Below are positions 19,914 to 30,030 of a DNA stretch of 34,215 nt, in pieces (within the stretch, counting starts at the first letter, position 1; every line of letters starts with the position of its first letter). A program made the translations under genes and the position numbers. Below the pieces are notes generated by a model that had not been told where the DNA came from, made no database searches, and saw only the letters and a program-made list of their open reading frames with translations. The stretch comes from Lachnospiraceae bacterium (lineage in GTDB: Bacteria; Bacillota; Clostridia; Lachnospirales; Lachnospiraceae), in contig JAUNGI010000029.1 of assembly GCA_030524525.1 (NCBI GenBank), positions 1-34,215 of the forward strand. Reading direction: 5' to 3'.

Positions 19914-21740
19914 TCAGACGTAGTACTGCGCCTGCGCGGCAAACATTTCGGCGTAGATGCCGCCCGGTTTGTTCACAAGCTCCGCGTGCGTGCCGTACTC
20001 CTTGATCGTATCGTCCGCGAAGACGGCGATGTGGTCGCAGAACTTGCAGCTCGAAAGCCGGTGGGAGATGTAGAGCGCGGTCTTCCCGCCCACCAGCTCG
20101 TGAAACCTTCGGTAAATTTCGTATTCGGCGACCGGATCGAGCGCCGCCGTCGGCTCGTCCAGAATGACGACGGGCGCGTTTTTGTACAGCGCGCGGCTGA
20201 TCGCCACCTTCTGCTTCTGACCGCCGGAAAGCTCGGTGCCCGTTTCGTCAAAGCTCTTGTAGATCATGGTATCCATGCCCTTTTCGAGCTTGATCGTATC
20301 GTCGTAAACGCCGCTCAGGCGAAGCGCCTCCTCAACGCGCGCCAAGTCCGCATGCTCCGAATCCTGTAAGGCGACGTTTTCCTTGAGCGAAAAGGCAAAC
20401 AGCCGGAAATCCTGAAAGACCACGGCGAACAGCTTCCGGTACTCCTCGTCGGAGTAGCGCTTGATGTTTTTGCCGTCCACAAGGATCTCGCCCTCGGTCA
20501 CGTCGTAGAGGCGGCAGAGCAGCTTGATAAACGTTGTCTTGCCCGCGCCGTTCAAGCCGACGATCGACAGATGTTCCCCGGAGCGGATCGTCAGATTTAC
20601 ATGACGAAGCACATAGGTTTCGCTGCGCGGATAGCGAAAGCCCACGTCCCGGAACTCGATGACATGCTCGTCCTCGCCGACCGGTTCCGTGCCTTTTTCC
20701 ATGGCGGCGGGGTAGTCGAGAAACTGTAGATATTCATACAGATAGCTGCACCGCTTGACGATCTCCTGCACGCCGTTTACGATGCTCCAGACGCCCCAGT
20801 AAAAGGTTCCGGCGGCGCTGCTGTACATCGAAAAGTCGCCCAGCGTGATCGCGCCCTTGATCGTCAGAAAGCCGATGTAAAAATAGCTTCCTCCGTCGCG
20901 CAGCGTGTTGACGACGTCCATTGCCAGTGAGTTTTTCCGTGTTTCCGTCGCCTGCCGTTTCCAGATCAGAAACATATTTTTGTTCTCACGAGCCGCCTTT
21001 TCCCCCATCATATCCACGCTGTCGTACAGCCGGATATCCTTTCCGTAGCGGAAATCGGCAAGCTGATAAAAGTAATAGCCGAATTTCCGGTTCACGGCGG
21101 CAAGAGCAAGAAAGCTCTGCACTTCAATTTTGTTGTTGCGGTAATTGAACCAACCGATCAGCAGCAGACTTGCGCCTTGGATGACGAGCAGCCACGGGCA
21201 GCCCATAACGACGATCGTTACGACGCCGACGATGACGGCGGCATTGAGGACGATCGCATATAGGCCTTGGAGGATTCCCTCCACGCCGCCGCTGTACCAG
21301 TCCGCGCCCTCGCGCGCCTTGTTGAGCTGATCAAGCGCCGCCGGGTCCTCGGTATGCTCGTAGTCCATCGCCATGGCGTGGTCGGCAAGCTGCTCGGACA
21401 GGCAGCGGTTGAACCATTCGCCCAGCGCCGTGCGGATGTGACCGCAGCCACTGCTGATCAGCGAGGCAAAAAACGTGACGCAGACGATCGCGGCGACGAT
21501 CCCCACAATGCGGCTTCGGTATTCCGAAAAGGGCGCGCCTCCCGCAACGGCGACAAAGGCTTCGATCAGATACTTTGGCAGGATCATCAGGAGCATGGTA
21601 CGCGCGACCTCCGCCGTCAGCTGGAGCAGATAAACGGCAAACAGAGCGGGGCGCTTCTTCCATGCGGTCTTGAGAACAAAGCCCAGCACCGACCGGAGCT
21701 TTTGCGAGGTTTTCGTTTTTGTGTCAGCCACAGAGCGCAC
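19914..21740 (-). CDS. ABC exporter half-transporter, second subunit
   Basis: The protein has 608 residues. An N-terminal six-helix exporter membrane domain (about 1-340) is fused to an ATPase domain. Walker A is GLNGAGKT (395-402), the ABC signature is LSGGQ (504-508), Walker B is VVILDEP with catalytic Glu (524-530), and the H-loop is YISHR. It starts with GTG at 21740, supported by aggagg six bases upstream, and overlaps the first subunit by 17 bases. Overlap and sequence similarity (both end in an AQYY segment) indicate a heterodimeric exporter. The substrate could be a peptide, lipid or drug and cannot be deduced. The regulator encoded upstream suggests inducible expression. Confidence 0.92.
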   Translation of the reverse strand: MRSVADTKTKTSQKLRSVLGFVLKTAWKKRPALFAVYLLQLTAEVARTMLLMILPKYLIEAFVAVAGGAPFSEYRSRIVGIVAAIVCVTFFASLISSGCGHIRTALGEWFNRCLSEQLADHAMAMDYEHTEDPAALDQLNKAREGADWYSGGVEGILQGLYAIVLNAAVIVGVVTIVVMGCPWLLVIQGASLLLIGWFNYRNNKIEVQSFLALAAVNRKFGYYFYQLADFRYGKDIRLYDSVDMMGEKAARENKNMFLIWKRQATETRKNSLAMDVVNTLRDGGSYFYIGFLTIKGAITLGDFSMYSSAAGTFYWGVWSIVNGVQEIVKRCSYLYEYLQFLDYPAAMEKGTEPVGEDEHVIEFRDVGFRYPRSETYVLRHVNLTIRSGEHLSIVGLNGAGKTTFIKLLCRLYDVTEGEILVDGKNIKRYSDEEYRKLFAVVFQDFRLFAFSLKENVALQDSEHADLARVEEALRLSGVYDDTIKLEKGMDTMIYKSFDETGTELSGGQKQKVAISRALYKNAPVVILDEPTAALDPVAEYEIYRRFHELVGGKTALYISHRLSSCKFCDHIAVFADDTIKEYGTHAELVNKPGGIYAEMFAAQAQYYV

Positions 21741-23583
21741 CCCCTTCCTCCTGATAATACTGCGCCTGAATGCGGAACATCTCCGCGTAAGCGCCGTTTT
21801 TTTTCAACAGCTCGTCGTGCGTGCCGTATTCGACCATTTTTCCGCTTTGAAACATGGCGACGTGGTCGCAGAAGCGCGTGGAGCTGAGGCGGTGGCTGAT
21901 GTAGACGGCGCTTTTGCCGCCGATCAGCCGGTCGAATTCCTGATACAGCCGGTATTCCGCCAGCGCGTCGAGCGCCGCCGTCGGCTCGTCGAGAACCACA
22001 ACGGGCGCGTCCTTGTACAGCGCTCTTGCAAGCGCCAGCTTCTGCCGCTCGCCGCCGGAAAAATCCACGCCCTCGTCGTCGATGACCTTGAGCACCTGCG
22101 TCATTACGCCGTCCTTCAGCTCTTTCAGCTTATCCGCAAAGCCCGCGTCTCGGAGGCACTGTTCCACGCGGCGGCAGTCGGTCGCCTCCGGCGTATCCAT
22201 GGATATGTTTTCGGAAAGCGGGAAGGCGAATAGCTCCACCTCCTGAAAGAGCGGGGCGAACAGCCGGTAATAATCCCGCTTTTCGTAAGTGCGCACATCC
22301 GTGCCGTTCAGCAGGATCCGTCCCTCCGTCGGCTCGTAGAGCCGGAGCAGCAGCTTGATCAGCGTGCTTTTGCCCGCGCCGTTTAAGCCGACCACCGCCA
22401 GCCGTTCGCCGGGGCGCAGCGTAAGGGTCAGATCCTTCAGCGCGCAGCTCTCCGCCTTTGGGTAGCGGAAGGAGACGTTTTCAAATGTAAATTCATAGCT
22501 TCCGGTGCGGGGAACCTTCTGCCCCTCGGCGTTCAGATCGCCGCCCTCAAAGTCGAGAAAGCTGCGGAAATCACAGACCTCCCGGCTGCGCTGGCGAAGA
22601 TCTGCAACGCTTTTGAGCAGCTGGGTCGCATAATTGAAAAACGTGCCTGCGGTCGCCGTATAGAGCGTTGCGTCGCCCACCGAGATGTTTCCGCGGACAA
22701 ATTGTACGACGATGAACACATAAATGCCGATCTGCGACACCATCCACATCAGGCTGTCGAACAGCCCGGCGGCAAACCAGAGCCATTCGTTCTTTTTCTG
22801 CATCCGATAGCGGTAGCGGTTCAGCTCCCTCATTTTTTCCAGCAGCCAGTCCTTCAAATGAAACATACGGATGTCTTTGGCGGCTTGGAAATCGGTGCTG
22901 ATATTTTGCATATAGTTGTTTTTGCGCCACCAGCTCGACAGAACGTCCCAGACGGTGCGCTTGGCGAGCGCATTGATCCGGTCGGTCATGAGAAACGAAA
23001 GCGCCGCGGTAAGCAGGAGCAGGACGATCAGCCCGGGGTGCAGCGTGCCCATAATGGCAATGCCCGTGCCGACGACCGTAAAGCTGCACAGAAGTCCCGC
23101 GCCGGTACGCATCATCCCCTCCACGCCGGAGTTGTTGTTCCCGGCAGAGTTTTGCGCCTTCTGGAACGCGTCCATGACGTCGGGGTTTTCCAGATGCTCA
23201 AAATCGACGGTCATTGCCTTGCGGATCAGACGGGTCAGAAGCGTCATTCGCGCGCCGATATAACGATACCAGCAGCTGGAATTGTAGAGCGTATTCAAAA
23301 GCGAGGCGGCAAGCTGTACCGCCGCAAAGCAGCCGATCACGAGCAGCAGACGCCGCCAGCCTTCGCCCTCCATCGCCATGTCGATCACGAGCTTGGCAAT
23401 AAAGCTCCAAAGATACTGCATGACCGGACTGACCAAGGCTCCGAGCGGAAGCAGCAGCCACAGAACCGGATATTCGGTCAGCAGGGCGTGAAAGATAAAC
23501 CTCAGGTTGCTGCCCACGGAATAGTCCCGGTGCAGCGGGTTCGCTTCTTCCGGCTTTTTCTTTACTTTCCTTTTTTCAGCCAT
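21724..23583 (-). CDS. ABC exporter half-transporter, first subunit
   Basis: The protein has 619 residues. A Lys-rich N-terminus, a six-helix membrane domain (about 25-330) and an ATPase domain are fused in one chain. Walker A is GLNGAGKST (399-407), the signature is FSGGE (508-512), Walker B is VVVLDEP (528-534) and the H-loop is YISHR. Both subunits keep the catalytic Glu, but this one has FSGGE in place of LSGGQ, so the two nucleotide sites may not be equal. The start at 23583 has aaggagg seven bases upstream and lies inside the end of the regulator gene (22-base overlap), so the three genes form one tightly coupled operon. Confidence 0.92.
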
Positions 23584-24443
23584 GGGAATTCCTCCTTTTG
23601 GAACAGCGGTTTCTCCGTCTGCTGCATTTGCAAACTATAGCTTTGGGGCAGATCCAGCATTTCTGCGGCGCATAAGAGAAGCTGCAGAAACGGCAGAAGA
23701 CAGGTATTGGAGATATGATAGATCGACTCGTTTTTCCCCACGGTCGTGCATTTCAAAAGGAAGGTGCGCGGCAGCTTCCGTAAAAAGGCGACGGCGTCCG
23801 AAAGCTCCTCTTGTGTAATGGAAAGCTCCGCCTTTAGAAAGCTTTCATCAACAAATTGGCAGGAACCCAGCGTTCCCAGATAGAGCAGGAGCTTCAGGTT
23901 GCTTTCGCTGCCGAGAAAGGCGAAGAGTTCGGAAAGGGCGGCGAGATCCTTTACGCAGCTCCCGTAGCCCTGCTTCGGTCTGGGAAACGCCATATAATAT
24001 TTCCAGTCGGGGCCAAGGCGCATAAAGGTGCAGATGCTGTCGGCGACAAGAGAGGAGGCGTTGGAGGCGGTAAAGTTGTCGGCGGCACGGTGCCATTTGC
24101 TGTCCTGATAGCCGCCGATCTGCATCGCCCAGCAGTAGTCCATGACTTTTTCCGTAAACTTTCGGATGTATTCGTCGGAATCCTTCGCCGAAATCGTTTG
24201 CAGGCTTGCGACGATCTCCTGTTCGACGCTGAGCTGCCGCTCGCCGCGTCCGTAGAGATAGTCGATTGTTACGTTAAAATAATCCGCCAGCCGCGGCAGC
24301 AGATCGCCGTCCGGATAGCTGCCGTTTTCCCACTTGGAAACGGCCTGCGGGCTGACGCCGAGCACGTTTGCAAGCTCCTCCTGCGTAATGCCCTTTTCCT
24401 TGCGCAGCAAACAGAGCTGCTGTGAAAAAATACTGCGTCCCAT
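23562..24443 (-). CDS. XRE-family regulator of the ABC exporter operon, with extra C-terminal domain
   Basis: The protein has 293 residues. Residues ~5-60 are an XRE helix-turn-helix ([23 protein letters not shown]) followed by the common [11 protein letters not shown] extension. The remaining ~220 residues are helical and end in a region (about 190-245) resembling a winged-helix fold, with [17 protein letters not shown] and [16 protein letters not shown]. This looks like a second, ArsR-like DNA- or ligand-binding module, which is inference. I chose ATG 24443 because gggagagg lies close upstream; the ATG at 24464 has no good site. The 3' end overlaps the exporter by 22 bases, arguing that it controls its own operon, perhaps in response to the exported compound. 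Confidence 0.88.
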
Positions 24444-24479
24444 GTTCCTCTCCCTTTTTGACATTCTTTTCTTGTTTTC

Positions 24480-24508: not shown

Positions 24509-24590
24509 TGGGGAATAAGAGGCGAATTTCTACCAAAAGTGGAGAACGGGAAGAAAAGTCTACTGATTTTGAATGATCCCTTTGGCGGTC

Positions 24591-24619
24591 AAAAACGGCA
24601 GGGAGCGTTTCCCTGCCGT
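24591..24619 (-). terminator. intrinsic terminator of the protease/ABC-2 module
   Basis: A perfect 10-bp stem (acggcaggga at 24595-24604 and tccctgccgt at 24610-24619) with a five-base loop is followed on the minus strand by a T-run (24595-24591). It lies 40 bases after the permease stop and is nearly identical to the terminator at 28319-28348. Confidence 0.9.
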
Positions 24620-24658
24620 GTGAGCGGTTCGCTTTGTGGAGCGCTTCGTCTTGATCAA

Positions 24659-25663
24659 TCACTCATAGCGGATTTGAAGGCTTCTCTTTGCCGAGTATAA
24701 CCAAGCAAGATAAATCAAAAGAGCTCCGACCAACAGCCGCGCCAAGGATGCCGCCAGATAGAAGCCGAGGGTTATATTATCCGAGAATATGGAAGGGATC
24801 AGGATCCTCCATGAGTATAAAAGCCGGTTTTCCTCCCAAAAGAACGTCAAGGCTCCGTAGGCAGCTACGACCGCAAGAGCCGCCGGCAGGTATTTTAGAG
24901 GATGATCGATCAGTTCGGAAACGAAAAAGAGCAGCGCCCAATATAAAAGAAGGACAAGATACAACGACGCTATGCTGAAAAGGTATTCCTGTCGTTCCGT
25001 AAGCAGGGTGATACCGCTGTCGTCGATAAACAAGACGAATTTTGTCTTGGAAGCAATTTGCGTTCTGAGAAGGGATAAGAAGCCTGTCTGAACGGCAAAG
25101 AAGAACGTCGCAAGAAGGAAAAAGCTTCCCGCCTCCCGAAGAAAGCATTTTTTTCTGCCCCGTAAAATAAGGCTGCAGACAGAAGCCCCGTTTGTACGCC
25201 CTTGGTTCACAATTTGACACAGGAGCAAAAGACCTGCGATGATCGAAAAGATCAGGCAGACGTCGATCGCCTGAAGGGAATAGCTTCTTCTGTCGCGGCT
25301 GTACGCAAACAGAATATTCCCGTCCACAACCTCCTCGTACGTTAGTTCATTCTTTTCCAGAAACTTTAGGATCTTTATGGATTCCTCGATATCCTTCCTG
25401 AGTTCGTCCAGTTCCTCCTCCTCCAAGTCCGGCTCCGCAGCCTCGCCGTCGTTTATTTCGTCGCGCCAAGCGGTTAATTCGTTGATTTGTGCTTTAAGCT
25501 CCTCGTGATTTTCATATTTTTCTACAAAGTGATTCCACCTGTCGTTCGTATCGGAACTGTTTTCGTAATATTTGACCGAGTACAGCAGGGTGGAAAAGAA
25601 GCACAAAAACAAAATCGTCCAAAACAGCCAGCCCTTTGTCAGTCGAATAAGAATATATTTCAT
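24659..25663 (-). CDS. ABC-2-like transporter permease with large extracellular loop
   Basis: The protein has 334 residues. One membrane helix at the N-terminus (about 12-30) is followed by a ~100-residue extracellular stretch with an acidic helix (EEEELDELRKDIEE). About five more helices follow (130-150, 172-192, 225-250, 256-275 and 300-325). This matches ABC-2-type permeases, in which the loop between helices 1 and 2 is external. The start codon overlaps the ATPase stop as ATGA, so the pair is translationally coupled. It is the last gene of the module. Family members export antibiotics, peptides or lipids or give self-immunity; the substrate here is unknown. Sequence alone gives no closer relative. 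Confidence 0.8.
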   Translation of the reverse strand: MKYILIRLTKGWLFWTILFLCFFSTLLYSVKYYENSSDTNDRWNHFVEKYENHEELKAQINELTAWRDEINDGEAAEPDLEEEELDELRKDIEESIKILKFLEKNELTYEEVVDGNILFAYSRDRRSYSLQAIDVCLIFSIIAGLLLLCQIVNQGRTNGASVCSLILRGRKKCFLREAGSFFLLATFFFAVQTGFLSLLRTQIASKTKFVLFIDDSGITLLTERQEYLFSIASLYLVLLLYWALLFFVSELIDHPLKYLPAALAVVAAYGALTFFWEENRLLYSWRILIPSIFSDNITLGFYLAASLARLLVGALLIYLAWLYSAKRSLQIRYE

Positions 25664-26511
25664 TTCGTTTTCTCCATTCCCGGTGAGGCGATATCCGACA
25701 GCAGCTTGACCGATACGATATTATACTCGGCGGTTTGGCGTATCATTTCCGAAATACTGTGCTGCTCTGTGGAAACCAGCAGCTTGTTCCGTACTTGCCC
25801 GCGCACCTCTTTTTCGTCGAGCTTTGCCGCCGCGCTTTTTGCGAATTGCTCGCTCGCAAAGGCGATTTCATATATTTCTGAGCGAACCCCAAGAGAAAGT
25901 CTTTGTTGCAGACGGCAGTCCTTTATTTCGTAAATGCAAGTGCAATTTTTTTCAAGCTCGTACATGATGTGCGTAACTAGGATTACGATCTTGCCGCGCG
26001 CCGCCGCTGCCTGCACCTGCTCGTAAAAAACGGAAATGCTTTGTATGTCAAGCGAGTTTGTGGGTTCGTCAAAAAGCAGCAGCTCCGCATTCGATTCAAA
26101 GGCAAGCAATAGGCTGAGCTTTTGCTTCATTCCCAGCGAATATTTTTTTAGTGGAGCGTCTGCGTACTCTGACAGACCCCATGCAGCAAGGGCGTTTTCA
26201 ACGCTCTTTTTGTCGTACTGCTTTTCAAGATAGTACTGCAGATTCTCGCGCCCGGTCATATCGCTCCATAATCTTGGCGTTTCAATAATCCCTGCCATGC
26301 GCGGACTTTCGCTTGAAGCGTCCGCATCCATAACAATATTTCCCGAAGCGGGAAAGAGAAATCCGGCAAGCAGCTTGATCAGCGTTGTTTTTCCGCTGCC
26401 GTTTTCTCCGATGACTGCGATAACGTCGCCGGGACGGGCCTGAAAGCTTGCCTCGGTGATAACTTTTTTCTTGCCGTACGCAAATGAGATATTGTTTACC
26501 AATACTTCCAT
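25660..26511 (-). CDS. ABC transporter ATPase of the protease/ABC-2 module
   Basis: The protein has 283 residues. Walker A is GENGSGKTT (about 34-42), the signature is SLGMKQ (about 129-134) as in drug- and bacteriocin-related ABC-2 ATPases, Walker B is LLLFDEP with catalytic Glu (about 150-156), and a VTHIMYE H-loop follows. The ~70-residue C-terminal extension beyond the ATPase core is typical for this group. The start at 26511 has ggagg five bases upstream; the longer frame runs back into the non-coding gap. It energises the permease encoded immediately downstream. A gap of 96 bases with two small hairpins separates it from the anchored unknown protein. Confidence 0.93.
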   Translation of the reverse strand: MEVLVNNISFAYGKKKVITEASFQARPGDVIAVIGENGSGKTTLIKLLAGFLFPASGNIVMDADASSESPRMAGIIETPRLWSDMTGRENLQYYLEKQYDKKSVENALAAWGLSEYADAPLKKYSLGMKQKLSLLLAFESNAELLLFDEPTNSLDIQSISVFYEQVQAAAARGKIVILVTHIMYELEKNCTCIYEIKDCRLQQRLSLGVRSEIYEIAFASEQFAKSAAAKLDEKEVRGQVRNKLLVSTEQHSISEMIRQTAEYNIVSVKLLSDIASPGMEKTK

Positions 26512-26576
26512 ATTTTCCTCCACAGTGGAGCAAACGATTTGCAAAGCGATTCCGCTGAGGGCTAAGCGCGCCGAGA

Positions 26577-26594
26577 ATGCCAAATTCTTGGCAT
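26577..26594. other. small perfect hairpin in the gap between module genes
   Basis: The sequence atgccaa (26577-26583) and ttggcat (26588-26594) form a 7-bp stem with a four-base loop. A second inverted repeat, gcaaa/tttgc (26530-26542), follows in the direction of transcription. Neither has a T-run, so RNA processing or stability is more likely than termination. Confidence 0.4.
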
Positions 26595-26607
26595 GTGTTT
26601 TCCGCTC

Positions 26608-27279
26608 TTAATTCTTCGCTTCCGTTATCAAAGAAACCTCGATCCCGTCTTCCGTAGCGTGTATTTTGGCGCCTCGCGGATACCATTCTGTGTCAAACAG
26701 GGAGACATAGATATCCTGATTTTCTTCGTCTACCTCGTAGAGTTCGGGCTGCACGCGCTCATAAAAGCCCACCAAGTCCGCAAACGAGCCAAGACCGGCG
26801 GTTTCCTCCCAACGAAACGAACTCACCTCGGCGTGGGCGAAGCCGTCCGCGTCAACAACGGGAGAGATCATTGTGCCGCCCCGGCGCTCCGGAGGGTAGA
26901 AGCCCCCAACCATTTCTTTGTAGGAAATGCTGCGCTCTGTTTCTTCTAGGTAGAAATAACGCTGATTTATGTATAAAAGATAACGCCCGGTTTCCCCGTC
27001 TGCAATTCGATAATGTTCGTCAAGCGAGTACAGATAATCGGGATTATCGGCAATATAATCCCGGTAAAAATTCTTGCCTTCTTTCAGAAAAAAACAATAT
27101 GTCAGATCGCCGATTCGTTTACACTCGGATGTGGTCGCATCCTTCAAAAGCAATTCGGCGGTACCGTCTTGGCTCATAAAAGATACGTCCTTGCTTTGCT
27201 CTGTGACGGTATGGAAGATAAGAAAGCCCGCAGCTCCTAAAAGGAGCGTAACGGAAATCACTAACAAAATTTTCTTCAT
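26608..27279 (-). CDS. membrane-anchored exported protein of unknown function
   Basis: The protein has 223 residues. A Lys start, one hydrophobic segment (about 4-23) and no lipobox Cys indicate a signal anchor with the remaining 200 residues outside. The mature part is rich in Tyr and acidic residues and has alternating strands (YLLYINQRYFYLEE; DIYVSLFDTEWYPRGAKIHA). I recognise no family. It begins 18 bases after the protease stop and shares the module promoter, so it probably works with the protease or the ABC transporter. It could be a substrate-recognition partner, an inhibitor or a sensor; nothing in the sequence decides this. Confidence 0.75.
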   Translation of the reverse strand: MKKILLVISVTLLLGAAGFLIFHTVTEQSKDVSFMSQDGTAELLLKDATTSECKRIGDLTYCFFLKEGKNFYRDYIADNPDYLYSLDEHYRIADGETGRYLLYINQRYFYLEETERSISYKEMVGGFYPPERRGGTMISPVVDADGFAHAEVSSFRWEETAGLGSFADLVGFYERVQPELYEVDEENQDIYVSLFDTEWYPRGAKIHATEDGIEVSLITEAKN

Positions 27280-27297
27280 TTACATTCTGCCCTCTGT

Positions 27298-28101
27298 TCA
27301 TTTCTTTCTGACCTTGGTTATTCCAAAGTCCCATCTGGAAAATACGTTCGTTCCGATTTCACACTCTGGAAAATACGAGTATTGTCTTAAACTGTTGTCT
27401 GACCATGTGTCATTGACAATAACAAAATCTTGCTTTTCCGTTTTTTTCACGGTTTTTCCCCAAACATTTTTTTGAGAATATCTGATGGTATAGGTCACAT
27501 AACCGCAGCCGGTCATTTCATGGTTGACGATTTTGAAAATACATACTCTGCCATTGTCGATTTCATCGCATAGAGTATCATAGATGTCATATCGGTCATT
27601 ATTGCCTTTCTTATTTTTGTGGTAGCAGGAGAACATCGTAGTCAGTAAGCTGTCTGCCTTTGCAAAGTCGAAAGAGCCTTCTCCGTCCCAGTATGAGAGA
27701 AAGTTGGCTCTATCTAATACCCGATAACCAATTTCTTTTCCTGTTCCCGTTACACCGTTAAATTTTAACACAGAGGCTTGCGCTGCCGCCCAACATACTC
27801 CGGTCTCTTTGGGTATTTTATTTTGTGACTTCATAAAGTTGTAATAATCTTTTATAACGGTTTGATCATAGTTTGGAGAATTCAGCTTGTGCTCCTGCCC
27901 GGCACTTATGGAAATAATGGATTTTTTCTTGTACATATTTTCTAAATATGCTTTCACGCTCTCTTGGTTTCTCTGGACAGAATTCGCCGTTCCTTCATCT
28001 TTTGGATCGACCAAAGCATACATAGCGAACAGATAAATCGCCAGTGAAGAGATTATAACTGCGATTAGTGTTTTTCCGATCCTCTCTTGTACAAGTTTCA
28101 T
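27298..28101 (-). CDS. membrane-anchored papain-like (C39/C70-like) cysteine protease
   Basis: The protein has 267 residues. One N-terminal membrane helix (about 11-32) leads to an extracellular domain. The likely catalytic triad is Cys103 in ETGVCWAAAQASVL, His194 in NHEMTGCGY and Asn230 in FVIVNDTW, the order and context seen in C39/C70 papain-like peptidases. The helix-capping CWAAA stretch is especially typical. The usual oxyanion Gln upstream of the Cys is not obvious. Two extra Cys (positions 178 and 187) and a CGY Cys are present. I chose ATG 28101 because aagggg lies at better spacing than for 28122 or 28104. It is the first gene behind a perfect consensus promoter. The composition is AT-richer than flanking genes, which hints at transfer. 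Confidence 0.7.
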   Translation of the reverse strand: MKLVQERIGKTLIAVIISSLAIYLFAMYALVDPKDEGTANSVQRNQESVKAYLENMYKKKSIISISAGQEHKLNSPNYDQTVIKDYYNFMKSQNKIPKETGVCWAAAQASVLKFNGVTGTGKEIGYRVLDRANFLSYWDGEGSFDFAKADSLLTTMFSCYHKNKKGNNDRYDIYDTLCDEIDNGRVCIFKIVNHEMTGCGYVTYTIRYSQKNVWGKTVKKTEKQDFVIVNDTWSDNSLRQYSYFPECEIGTNVFSRWDFGITKVRKK

Positions 28102-28196: not shown

Positions 28197-28225
28197 ATTA
28201 TACAGTCCATTTGAGCCCGTGTCAA
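28197..28225 (-). promoter_or_regulatory. perfect consensus sigma-A promoter of the protease module
   Basis: On the minus strand TTGACA (28225-28220), a 17-base spacer and TATAAT (28202-28197) match the consensus at every position. A small hairpin, tagaat/attcta (28182-28197), starts at the -10 and would lie at the very 5' end of the transcript. The leader is about 90 bases. Confidence 0.85.
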
Positions 28226-28318
28226 TATACAGCTGAACATTTGCAGACTTTTTTATCTGGCGTGTTAAATGAAGAACTTCGTATTTTCCTTGAAAGGATA
28301 CCGCCGCTTTCGGCAGTC

Positions 28319-28348
28319 AAAAAACGGCAGGGAGCTTTTCCCTGCCGT
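28319..28348 (-). terminator. intrinsic terminator of asnB, twin of the one at 24591
   Basis: A perfect 10-bp stem (acggcaggga at 28324-28333 and tccctgccgt at 28339-28348) with a five-base loop is followed on the minus strand by six Ts (28324-28319). It lies 20 bases after the asparagine synthetase stop. Confidence 0.9.
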
Positions 28349-28367
28349 GTGCGTATCGGATATGAAG

Positions 28368-29948
28368 TTATTCTCCGCTGGCTCCATAGTTTGAGAGCAC
28401 TCTTGCGGAGGGGTCGTTGACGTTGCAGCCTTCCCACGACTTGTTGGGCATCCAGAAATCCACGATCATTTCCGCCTGCTCCGGATAGAAGCGCTCAAAG
28501 ATTTCGCGGTACCAGAGCGATTCCTTCGTAAACGGTCTGGCATGGGTGTATTTGGCGGAGAGGCGCTCAAACTCCTCGTCGGTGTATTGCTCCTCGGCGG
28601 CTTCCTTCAGATAATTCACCATCGAATGACCGACCGCGTCGCTGAACGCCGCTTTTTCGCGCATCAGAATGTTCTGCGGCAGATAGTCGCCCTCAAAGGC
28701 GCGGCGGAGCAAATACTTGCCCTTGTTGTAGGTATTGAGCTTCTTCTGCGGGTCGATGCTCATGACATATTCGACAAAGTCCAGATCGCCGAACGGAACG
28801 CGGGCCTCCAAGGAGTTGGCGGAGATGCAGCGGTCGGCACGGAGCACGTCGTACATATGCAGCTCGCGGATCCGCTTTGCCGCTTCCTCCTGAAACGCTT
28901 CGGCGGAAGGGGCGAAGTCGGTGTACTTATAACCGAACAGCTCGTCGGAGATCTCCCCGGTCAGCAGCACGCGCACGTCGGTGGTCTCGTGGATCGCCTT
29001 GCAGATCAGGTACATTCCGATGCTTGCGCGGATGGTGGTGATATCGTAGGTTCCGAGAATGTGGATGACCTCAGGCAGGATGGCGAGCACGTCGTCCTTC
29101 GTTATAATGATCTCGCGGTGGTCACTGTGGATATAATCCGCAACCTCCTTCGCATATTTCAGGTCGATGGCGTCGGTGCTCATGCCGATGGCAAACGTGC
29201 GGATGGGCTTTTTCAGAAGCTTTGCCGCCACGGCGCAGACAAGGGACGAATCCAGACCGCCGCTTAACAGAAAACCCAGCGGCGCGTCGGCGTCCAGTCG
29301 TTTTTCAATGCCCGAAACGAGCTTGTCGTGAATGTTTTTGCAGATCACATCGAGATCGTCGGTAACGACCCGCGCCACCTGCGTCATGTCCCGGTAGCAG
29401 ACAAAGCGGCCGTCCTGATAATAATGTCCCGGCGGGAACGGAGAGACCTTTTCGCATAGACCGACCAGATTTTTTGCCTCGCTGGCAAAGACAATGCTTC
29501 CCTCGCTGTCATAGCCGTAATAGAGCGGGCGAATGCCGATCGGGTCTCTGGCGGCGACCAGCGACTTGGTTTTGTGATCGTAAAGGATCAGCGCGAATTC
29601 CGCGTCCAGCATGGCGAACATGGAAACGCCGTGAAGCTGATAGAGCGGCAGCAGGATCTCACAGTCGGAATCGCTGGCAAAGGAATAGCCCTGCCGCTTC
29701 AATTCCTCGCGAATGGGGCGAAAGCCGTAGATCTCGCCGTTGCATACGAGCATATCGCCGTCCAGCGCAAAGGGCTGCATTCCCTCCGGAGTCAGACCCA
29801 TGATGGCAAGGCGGTGAAAACCAAAGAGCGCGTCGCCCTCCTGCCGAAGCCGGGTCATGTCCGGTCCCCGCGAGACGGTTTCCTGAAAGCCCTCCGTAAA
29901 TTGTTCGGCAGTGATGGCGCTGCCGAGATATCCCATAATTGAACACAT
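28368..29948 (-). CDS. asnB: asparagine synthetase (glutamine-hydrolysing)
   Basis: The protein has 526 residues and makes asparagine from aspartate, ATP and glutamine. The start at 29948 places the catalytic Cys at position 2 (MCSIMGYLG), as required for class II glutamine amidotransferases, and ggagg lies nine bases upstream. The glutaminase domain shows HRLAIMG and CNGEIY; the synthetase domain shows the pyrophosphatase loop SGGLDSS (229-235). The length is close to bacterial AsnB. It lies 82 bases after glutamine synthetase III with a long hairpin between, so expression probably comes from read-through plus possibly its own promoter. The pair couples ammonia assimilation to amide transfer. 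Confidence 0.96.
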   Translation of the reverse strand: MCSIMGYLGSAITAEQFTEGFQETVSRGPDMTRLRQEGDALFGFHRLAIMGLTPEGMQPFALDGDMLVCNGEIYGFRPIREELKRQGYSFASDSDCEILLPLYQLHGVSMFAMLDAEFALILYDHKTKSLVAARDPIGIRPLYYGYDSEGSIVFASEAKNLVGLCEKVSPFPPGHYYQDGRFVCYRDMTQVARVVTDDLDVICKNIHDKLVSGIEKRLDADAPLGFLLSGGLDSSLVCAVAAKLLKKPIRTFAIGMSTDAIDLKYAKEVADYIHSDHREIIITKDDVLAILPEVIHILGTYDITTIRASIGMYLICKAIHETTDVRVLLTGEISDELFGYKYTDFAPSAEAFQEEAAKRIRELHMYDVLRADRCISANSLEARVPFGDLDFVEYVMSIDPQKKLNTYNKGKYLLRRAFEGDYLPQNILMREKAAFSDAVGHSMVNYLKEAAEEQYTDEEFERLSAKYTHARPFTKESLWYREIFERFYPEQAEMIVDFWMPNKSWEGCNVNDPSARVLSNYGASGE

Positions 29949-29969
29949 ATATGTGAACCTCCCATATAT

Positions 29970-30014
29970 AAACATCCCGGTCGATGGCCGTTGGGACTGT
30001 CGACCGGGATGTTT
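29970..30014 (-). terminator. long hairpin between glnN and asnB (terminator or attenuator)
   Basis: A perfect 15-bp stem (aaacatcccggtcga at 29970-29984 and its complement at 30000-30014) with a 15-base loop is followed on the minus strand by tttatatat. It lies 16 bases after the glnN stop and directly before the asnB ribosome binding site. It could end glnN transcripts or modulate read-through into asnB. Confidence 0.75.
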
Positions 30015-30030
30015 CTGCATTGTTTTTCCA

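What the first reader, a model, noticed from the sequence alone, without database searches (positions are those of the whole stretch)
24659..28101. Membrane-anchored papain-like protease, anchored unknown protein and ABC-2 transporter in one operon
Seen: four same-strand genes behind one perfect promoter, closed by one terminator. They encode an external cysteine protease (Cys103, His194, Asn230), an external protein of unknown family, an ATPase with a SLGMKQ signature and a six-helix permease, with an ATGA overlap in the last pair. Known: C39-type proteases and ABC transporters cooperate in peptide export, but there the protease is fused to a cytoplasmic face of the transporter. Here it is separate, and its membrane helix suggests it faces outside. 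No precursor peptide gene is visible. Inference: a peptide-processing export, sensing or self-protection system with a new arrangement.
Basis: partly seen in the sequence, partly recalled or inferred. Interest (0 to 1): 0.72.

Follow-up and report, generated by a model that had tools for sequence, protein, structure and literature searches.

The report
Surface protease and transporter gene set
In a gut bacterium, four neighbouring genes appear to make a cutting enzyme tethered to the outside of the cell, a second tethered protein and a two-part membrane pump; the same four genes recur together in related gut bacteria, but what they do is still a guess.

Summary
Four minus-strand genes (27298-28101, 26608-27279, 25660-26511, 24659-25663) follow a perfect sigma-70-type promoter. 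They recur in the same order at 13 loci in 12 genomes, mostly Lachnospiraceae, with a second, diverged copy in the window's own genome. The four protein trees agree (12 loci, r 0.66-0.83). Protein 1 is very probably papain-like: two relatives score just below Pfam's C39_2 cut-off, and four more distant profile hits examined pass it. The structure tool was off, so no fold was shown.

No precursor peptide gene is shared by the flanks examined. Protease and partner also occur as a pair without the transporter, and a close copy of one operon partner sits behind a serpin, a protease inhibitor. Against a simple toxin-immunity reading, protease-free partner relatives reside beside deoB in at least nine genomes of the genus.

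Best reading, moderate confidence: an outward-facing peptide-defence module, working like the nisin-resistance protease with its transporter but built from other families. Rival: a protease with a tethered inhibitor. A separate membrane protease beside an ABC transporter is not itself new.

The parts
28197..28225 (-). Perfect sigma-70-type promoter, TTGACA-17-TATAAT, about 95 bases before the protease start
   Evidence: read
27298..28101 (-). Papain-like (C39_2-like) cysteine protease, 267 aa, one N-terminal hydrophobic anchor, Cys103, His194, Asn230/Asp231
26608..27279 (-). Partner: 223 aa, one N-terminal hydrophobic anchor, body of a family with no significant Pfam, NCBIfam or PDB match
25660..26511 (-). 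ABC ATPase, 283 aa, exporter type (best NCBIfam model TIGR03740, far below its cut-off)
24659..25663 (-). ABC-2-like permease, 334 aa, 5-6 hydrophobic stretches, about 110 residues between the first two; ATGA overlap with the ATPase gene. The ABC-2 label rests on one of 8 relatives matching PF12698 at 2.5e-4 and on gene order
24596..24618 (-). Intrinsic-terminator-like stem-loop closing the operon
28325..28347 (-). Near-identical stem-loop behind asnB, bounding the operon on the promoter side; the strict pattern occurs only at these two places in the genome held

Best explanation
The operon encodes an envelope module that handles peptides at the outer face of the membrane, most likely for self-protection. 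The ABC transporter (ATPase plus one permease, presumably 2+2) pushes or lifts a membrane-active peptide out of the membrane. The tethered papain-like protease cuts it outside. The tethered partner works with the protease there, either by presenting or capturing the peptide or by holding the protease in check. Shown: gene order, co-occurrence, agreeing trees, protease motifs, one N-terminal hydrophobic segment in protease and partner. Inferred: outside location, catalysis, what the transporter carries, direct contact of partner and protease. My confidence is about 0.85 that protein 1 is papain-like, 0.9 that the four genes are one functional unit, and 0.38 for the defence role.
For: Same order at 13 loci in 12 genomes (window and L007; L008, L009, L010, L011; L019, L020, L023; L079; L137, L138, L139). 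Tree agreement r 0.66-0.83 over 12 loci, permutation p 0.005 or less for all six pairs. In 299 family genomes the permease profile hits strongly only the 6 operon loci it was built from; the other 4 places, in 3 genomes, are weak (9.8e-10 to 3.5e-4), so the permease family was not found strongly outside the operon. Papain-like: L009 21.1 and L079 19.3 bits against PF13529, cut-off 24; the four distant profile hits examined (L014, L080, L081, L082) all pass that cut-off; profile-profile P 1.4e-4, probability 52%, catalytic Cys on Cys. The lantibiotic-protection model TIGR03740 heads the list for the window ATPase and, of the 8 models that match all 6 ATPases scanned, has the lowest best E-value. 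No family of small genes shared between loci in the flanks of 9 of the 13 loci, apart from one weak pair, so making and exporting a locally encoded peptide is less likely. Two operons with 28% identical ATPases in one genome would fit different target peptides.
Against: ATPase scores are far below cut-offs (118.8 against 309.75) and CcmA scores nearly the same (117.9). The window protease itself has no significant Pfam match. The profile-profile alignment covers the Cys half only and ends just before His194. No two-component genes lie within the operons. Only one permease, not two. The partner has no lipobox. Protease and partner exist without the transporter at three or more loci, so the pair can occur without it. 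No substrate is known.
Confidence: 0.38

Rival explanations
1. Protease with a tethered inhibitor. The papain-like enzyme is a secreted or surface protease (for nutrition or against neighbours) and the partner is its membrane-anchored inhibitor, protecting the producer; the ABC pump is an added self-protection or release device.
For: Protease-partner pairs without ABC genes: L016 with two tandem partners, L072 and the second pair of L076. Each of the 17 proteases of the family that I read (13 operon loci, L016, L072, two in L076) has a partner beside it. Partner doubled around the protease in L010/L022. A partner 52% identical to the operon partner of the same genome sits directly behind a serpin gene (PF00079, 1.7e-72). 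In 2 of 13 operons the protease frame carries a stop while the other three genes are open. Bacteroides C10 proteases are co-transcribed with exported, partly lipoprotein, staphostatin-like inhibitors (passages of PMC3462683). C39-related papain-like domains are among the toxin domains of polymorphic toxins (passages of PMC3482391).
Against: No match of the partner to any inhibitor family. A separate clade of partner relatives sits beside deoB without protease in at least 9 genomes of the genus, which a dedicated inhibitor does not explain; others lie beside an ABC exporter. The reading gives the transporter no clear job. The 2-of-13 difference is small (about p 0.06, by hand).
Confidence: 0.27
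2. Peptide maturation, export or signalling system: the transporter exports a peptide encoded elsewhere and the outside protease trims it, as proposed for YydH.
For: Exporter models lead the ATPase matches; YydFGHIJ pairs a membrane-anchored putative protease with an ABC transporter (passages of PMC7026026).
Against: 145 small ORFs from the flanks of 9 loci show no family shared between loci except one weak pair (E 0.007, 33% over 33 residues, L079 and window, both antisense to the operon). No modification enzyme was seen to be constant beside the operon. In YydFGHIJ the transporter is a postulated immunity factor, found at most minor, not the exporter.
Confidence: 0.2
3. The four genes are chance neighbours or a loose cluster and do not form one system.
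For: Partner and protease families each occur elsewhere.
Against: Same order at 13 loci with differing flanking genes, overlapping genes, agreeing trees.
Confidence: 0.03

Closest known systems
NSR with NsrFP, nisin resistance of Streptococcus agalactiae (PMC4828448 abstract and introduction; PMC5786555 passages)
   Same: Membrane-associated protease encoded beside an ATPase and one permease
   Different: NSR is a serine protease; NsrP is of the BceB type (ten helices, outer domain of 200-250 residues); a two-component system is present. None of these was found in the operons here.
LanI with LanFEG, and CprABC with a lipoprotein (PMC5786555 passages)
   Same: ABC pump with six-helix permeases beside a membrane-attached outer protein; the ATPase model of this group scores best here
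   Different: Two permeases and a lipoprotein there; one permease and a helix anchor here; a protease here; scores far below cut-off
Papain-fold protease with linked inhibitor: staphopain-staphostatin, SpeB-Spi, Bacteroides btp-bti (PMC3462683 passages)
   Same: Papain-like protease directly beside a small protein (exported in Bacteroides), also as pairs without a transporter
   Different: Partner has no match to these inhibitors; protease is nearest C39_2, with no C10 or C47 Pfam match in the family members scanned; a transporter is added
YydFGHIJ epipeptide locus of Bacillus subtilis (PMC7026026 passages)
   Same: Separate membrane-anchored putative protease followed by a two-gene ABC transporter
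   Different: No precursor peptide gene found and no radical SAM gene in the operons here
Peptidase-containing ABC transporters (C39 fused)
   Same: Papain-like peptidase and ABC transporter serving peptides (recalled)
   Different: Fused and cytoplasmic there (recalled); separate gene with an N-terminal anchor here
PmtC, phenol-soluble modulin export ATPase (NF047568; PDB 6xjh, its naming as PmtC recalled)
   Same: ATPase of like length, aligned over residues 5-265 of 283
   Different: Score 108.9 against a cut-off of 375

Membership tests
Peptidase_C39_2 (PF13529), papain-like clan | Score over Pfam's curated cut-off (24 bits) | tested here: not met
   Window protein: no match. Of 8 members in A6 only L009 matched, 21.1 bits; L079 19.3.
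Peptidase_C39_2 (PF13529), papain-like clan | Catalytic Cys, then His, then Asp/Asn in order | tested here: met
   15 of the 17 family proteases (L023 and the broken one of L076 left out): GxC in 15 of 15; a His-x5-G/N pattern at the right place in 13 of 15 (strict His-x5-Gly-Tyr in 10), by eye in the other 2 (L139, L076 first); an Asn or Asp in the [NC][DNS]xW motif in 15 of 15.
Peptidase_C39_2 (PF13529), papain-like clan | Papain-like fold | not testable with these tools
Profile-profile with 6 C39_2-region proteins (of 14 loci tried, the 6 with a readable frame) gave probability 52%, P 1.4e-4, over the Cys half only.
NSR/NsrFP nisin resistance | Serine (S41-type, recalled) protease | tested here: not met
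   No such Pfam match for the window protein or the 8 members of A6.
NSR/NsrFP and BceAB | Ten-helix permease with 200-250 residue outer domain between helices 7 and 8 | tested here: not met
   5-6 hydrophobic stretches, long stretch after the first (hydropathy only).
NSR/NsrFP and BceAB | Two-component regulator in the operon | tested here: not met
   None within the four-gene operons (read by eye).
LanFEG / CprABC | ATPase over the TIGR03740 cut-off | tested here: not met
   118.8 against 309.75 bits for the window ATPase.
LanFEG / CprABC | Two different permease genes | tested here: not met
   One permease at each of the 13 operon loci read.
LanI | Lipoprotein | tested here: not met
   No lipobox pattern in 12 of 12 operon partners.
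Staphostatin/Spi-type inhibitors | Sequence match to a known inhibitor family | tested here: not met
   window partner; 12-member alignment; best chance matches were 0.0039 in Pfam and 0.54 in PDB, none an inhibitor.
Staphostatin/Spi-type inhibitors | Inhibits the neighbouring protease | not testable with these tools
   Needs a bench assay.
Peptidase-containing ABC transporter | C39 domain fused to the transporter | tested here: not met
   Separate genes.
Epipeptide locus (Yyd/Epe) | Precursor peptide and radical SAM epimerase genes | tested here: not met
   No shared small gene; no radical SAM gene within the operons (read by eye).

The most novel reading that the evidence does not exclude
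A previously undescribed envelope machine: a tethered papain-like protease whose activity is governed by a tethered partner of a new protein family, coupled to a dedicated ABC pump so that one unit extracts a peptide from the membrane and destroys it. The same partner family would have been re-used with a serpin and as stand-alone surface protease antagonists among competing gut bacteria.
Probability: 0.25. Interest if true: 0.75.

Novelty: new variant of a known kind. Interest (0 to 1): 0.5.

Why it matters
Rumen and gut Lachnospiraceae probably compete with peptides and proteases, and I know of few characterised resistance or weapon genes in them. This operon links a papain-like surface protease, an unnamed surface protein family and an ABC pump in a conserved unit that can be tested as a cassette in a laboratory strain. 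The partner family, found with proteases, with a serpin and alone, may be a new kind of surface protease regulator.

Tried and rejected
Family libraries: Pfam, NCBIfam and PADLOC gave nothing beyond chance for the window's protease, partner or permease; a few relatives gave hints. PDB sequence searches gave only matches I take as chance for protease, partner and permease (best E 1.2, 0.025, 0.54 and 0.0046; the last is a chaperonin stretch over the charged loop of the permease).

Orphan immunity genes: I first read partner copies without protease as orphan immunity genes. At least 9 genomes of the genus carry such a gene beside deoB, and the seven put in the tree form a clade of their own, so this branch is resident and inherited, not a relic. 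The alaS-rpsU copy in the window's genome (L070) is a relic with a frameshift near its start, at the site where G915 holds a full operon (L137). I therefore lowered that reading.

Insertion footprint: the operon is bounded by copies of a terminator in the window (43-45 nt) and of a 102-nt stretch in L021. But L023, a near relative with the same neighbouring genes, has only the right-hand copy. Of 10 four-gene loci, 3 beat their shuffles (window, L021, and L009 with a weak 18-nt match) and 7 did not (L022 has only 19 bases of left flank); 2 pair loci there and 4 loci (one, L136, the same contig as L019) did not. Controls were single-base shuffles. Not claimed as an insertion mark. In congeners something else follows asnB in the 11 of 18 loci that could be read.

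Mobile carriers: no match in plasmids (protease), phages (partner) or viral contigs (protease); not every protein was tried in every collection.

Not in print: in my eight paper searches no listed title or shown start of abstract describes this gene set; the lists were capped and the library lacks most subscription journals.
Full report
What is there. Four minus-strand genes lie between asnB (28368-30020; PF00733) and a helix-turn-helix regulator gene (23562-24464; PF01381): a 267-residue protein, a 223-residue protein, an ABC ATPase of 283 and a permease of 334 residues. A perfect promoter precedes them and a G+C-rich stem-loop with a T run closes them. Proteins 1 and 2 each have one hydrophobic stretch near the N-terminus and no lipobox; by the usual positive-inside rule (recalled) this places their bodies outside.

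Family of protein 1. Alone, the window protein matches nothing significant. With relatives the picture changes: L009 and L079 reach 21.1 and 19.3 bits against Peptidase_C39_2, cut-off 24, while the other 7 of the 8 proteins in A6 do not match it. The family profile's four distant hits that I examined, L014, L080, L081 and L082, all pass that cut-off (found; tested). Profile-profile alignment to six proteins drawn from C39_2 matches puts Cys103 on the catalytic Cys with P 1.4e-4 and probability 52%, but covers only the Cys half. The order GxC, His-x5-Gly-Tyr, Asn/Asp is as in C39_2. I take protein 1 as papain-like with a confidence of about 0.85. The third catalytic residue is either Asn230 or Asp231. 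The fold could not be predicted, because the tool was off.

Co-occurrence. Protein 1 was found in 5 of 299 sampled genomes of the family and 5 of 22 of the genus. A wider profile at E 0.001 hit 3 of 392 genomes of the order and 5 of 291 of the class; these counts include the window's own genome and the distant C39_2 proteins. A scan of genome contigs gave 6 loci, all titled Lachnospiraceae or Lachnoclostridium; three of them are contigs of the same length as those of G009, G039 and G073, from which I infer that the window's family is Lachnospiraceae. Four-gene operons in the same order: window, L007, L008 (same contig as L018), L009, L010 (as L022), L011 (as L021), L019 (as L136), L020, L023, L079, L137, L138, L139; that is 13 loci in 12 genomes. 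Genes were told by eye and by alignment. L079 is from another family of the class. L021 and L023 are near-identical, so the tree test used 12 loci: correlations 0.66 (protease-partner) to 0.83 (ATPase-permease), permutation p 0.005 or less for all six pairs. L007 and L139 form a deep second branch in all four trees.

The pair without the pump. L016 has a secreted protease and two tandem partners, L072 one of each, and the second pair of L076 has no transporter genes after it; for the first pair of L076 the contig ends too soon to tell. In G009 a partner 52% identical to that genome's operon partner follows a serpin gene, the two ORFs overlapping by 4 bases. In L010/L022 two partners flank the protease. 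Two of 13 operon proteases have an in-frame stop (L008, L139), while the other three genes are open at all 13 loci; this difference is small (by hand, about p 0.06) and these are metagenome assemblies in part. Serpins can inhibit papain-like enzymes, staphopains among them (passages of PMC7863939).

Against a simple inhibitor story. The partner profile hits 15 of 22 genomes of the genus at E 1e-6, more than the protease (5 of 22 at E 1e-3); in the family sample it hits 15 of 299 at E 1e-3, about half of them weak and doubtful, and in the order sample 2 of 310 at E 1e-6. Of the 17 regions I fetched in the genus, a deoB-like gene (named by recall; PF01676 for the L164 copy) is visible beside the partner match in 8; with L071 that makes at least 9 genomes. 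In three of the 8 the partner itself was not among the ORFs my script kept and is placed by the match. The seven deoB-side partners put in the tree form their own clade. A further set lies next to an ABC exporter gene (L174, L175, L176). The partner family is thus wider than this operon.

No peptide gene. A filtered scan of both flanks of ten loci found no common small ORF. An unfiltered scan of 9 loci (145 ORFs) gave only matches within one locus, caused by repeated terminators, plus one weak cross-locus pair at E 0.007. L137, L138 and L139 were not in these scans, and a peptide gene elsewhere in the genome would not be seen.

How it probably works. The known neighbours in function are lantibiotic-resistance operons, where an ABC transporter removes the peptide from the membrane and an extra lipoprotein or a serine protease may be present (PMC5786555 passages; PMC4828448 abstract and introduction). 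The operon here has the same kinds of part, but from other families, without a two-component system and with one permease. The window ATPase's best model is the lantibiotic-protection ATPase, though far below cut-off and closely followed by CcmA. I commit to a defence module at 0.38, with protease plus tethered inhibitor at 0.27 and peptide maturation at 0.20. These overlap: the partner may restrain the protease in any of them.

Novelty. A separate membrane protease next to an ABC transporter is known (NSR/NsrFP; YydH/YydIJ, PMC7026026 passages), and papain-like proteases with linked exported inhibitors are known (PMC3462683 passages). I found no description of the combination, of this protease class in this role or of the partner family in the listings I saw. 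Hence: new variant of a known kind.

On rechecking I corrected the count of repeat-flanked loci, added the limits of the profile-profile alignment and of the permease profile, and added.

Noticed in passing
window 24580-24622 and 28307-28351; L021 7700-7801 and 11382-11483: The operon is bounded by two near-identical terminator copies in the window (strict pattern only at these two places in the genome held). In L021 the bounding repeat is 102 nt, 98% identical, and holds the terminator plus the 3' end of the next gene; the near relative L023 has only the right copy.
   Followed up: partly
L075 150-1553 and 1550-2242: A serpin gene (N-terminal hydrophobic stretch by eye) overlapping a partner-family ORF that is 52% identical to the operon partner of the same genome.
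   Followed up: partly
L070 5947-6588; L137 6469-9949: Between alaS and rpsU the window's genome has only a partner relic with a frameshift near its start, where the congener G915 has the whole operon.
   Followed up: yes
L007 9367-10775: An orphan partner-family gene lies directly behind a staphylococcal-nuclease-like gene (PF00565, 3.5e-16) on the contig of the second operon.
   Followed up: no
L076 62-5403: Two tandem pairs of protease and a double-length (494 and 503 aa) partner; the second protease frame is broken.
   Followed up: partly
L082 13-1056: An RHS-like protein (by eye) with a C-terminal C39_2/C70 papain-like domain, found by the protease profile in another family.
   Followed up: no
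L014 961-2420; L080 7434-9251: Two distant C39_2 proteins are each followed by a small protein with an N-terminal hydrophobic stretch (142 and 170 aa, by eye; the first without Pfam match), so a protease plus anchored neighbour may be a wider theme.
   Followed up: no
window 19914-24464: A helix-turn-helix regulator gene followed by two ABC exporter genes (619 and 608 aa) on the same strand, just beyond the operon.
   Followed up: no
L164 3923-4621 and like places in the genus: A partner-family gene beside a deoB-like gene in at least 9 genomes of the genus; role unknown.
   Followed up: partly
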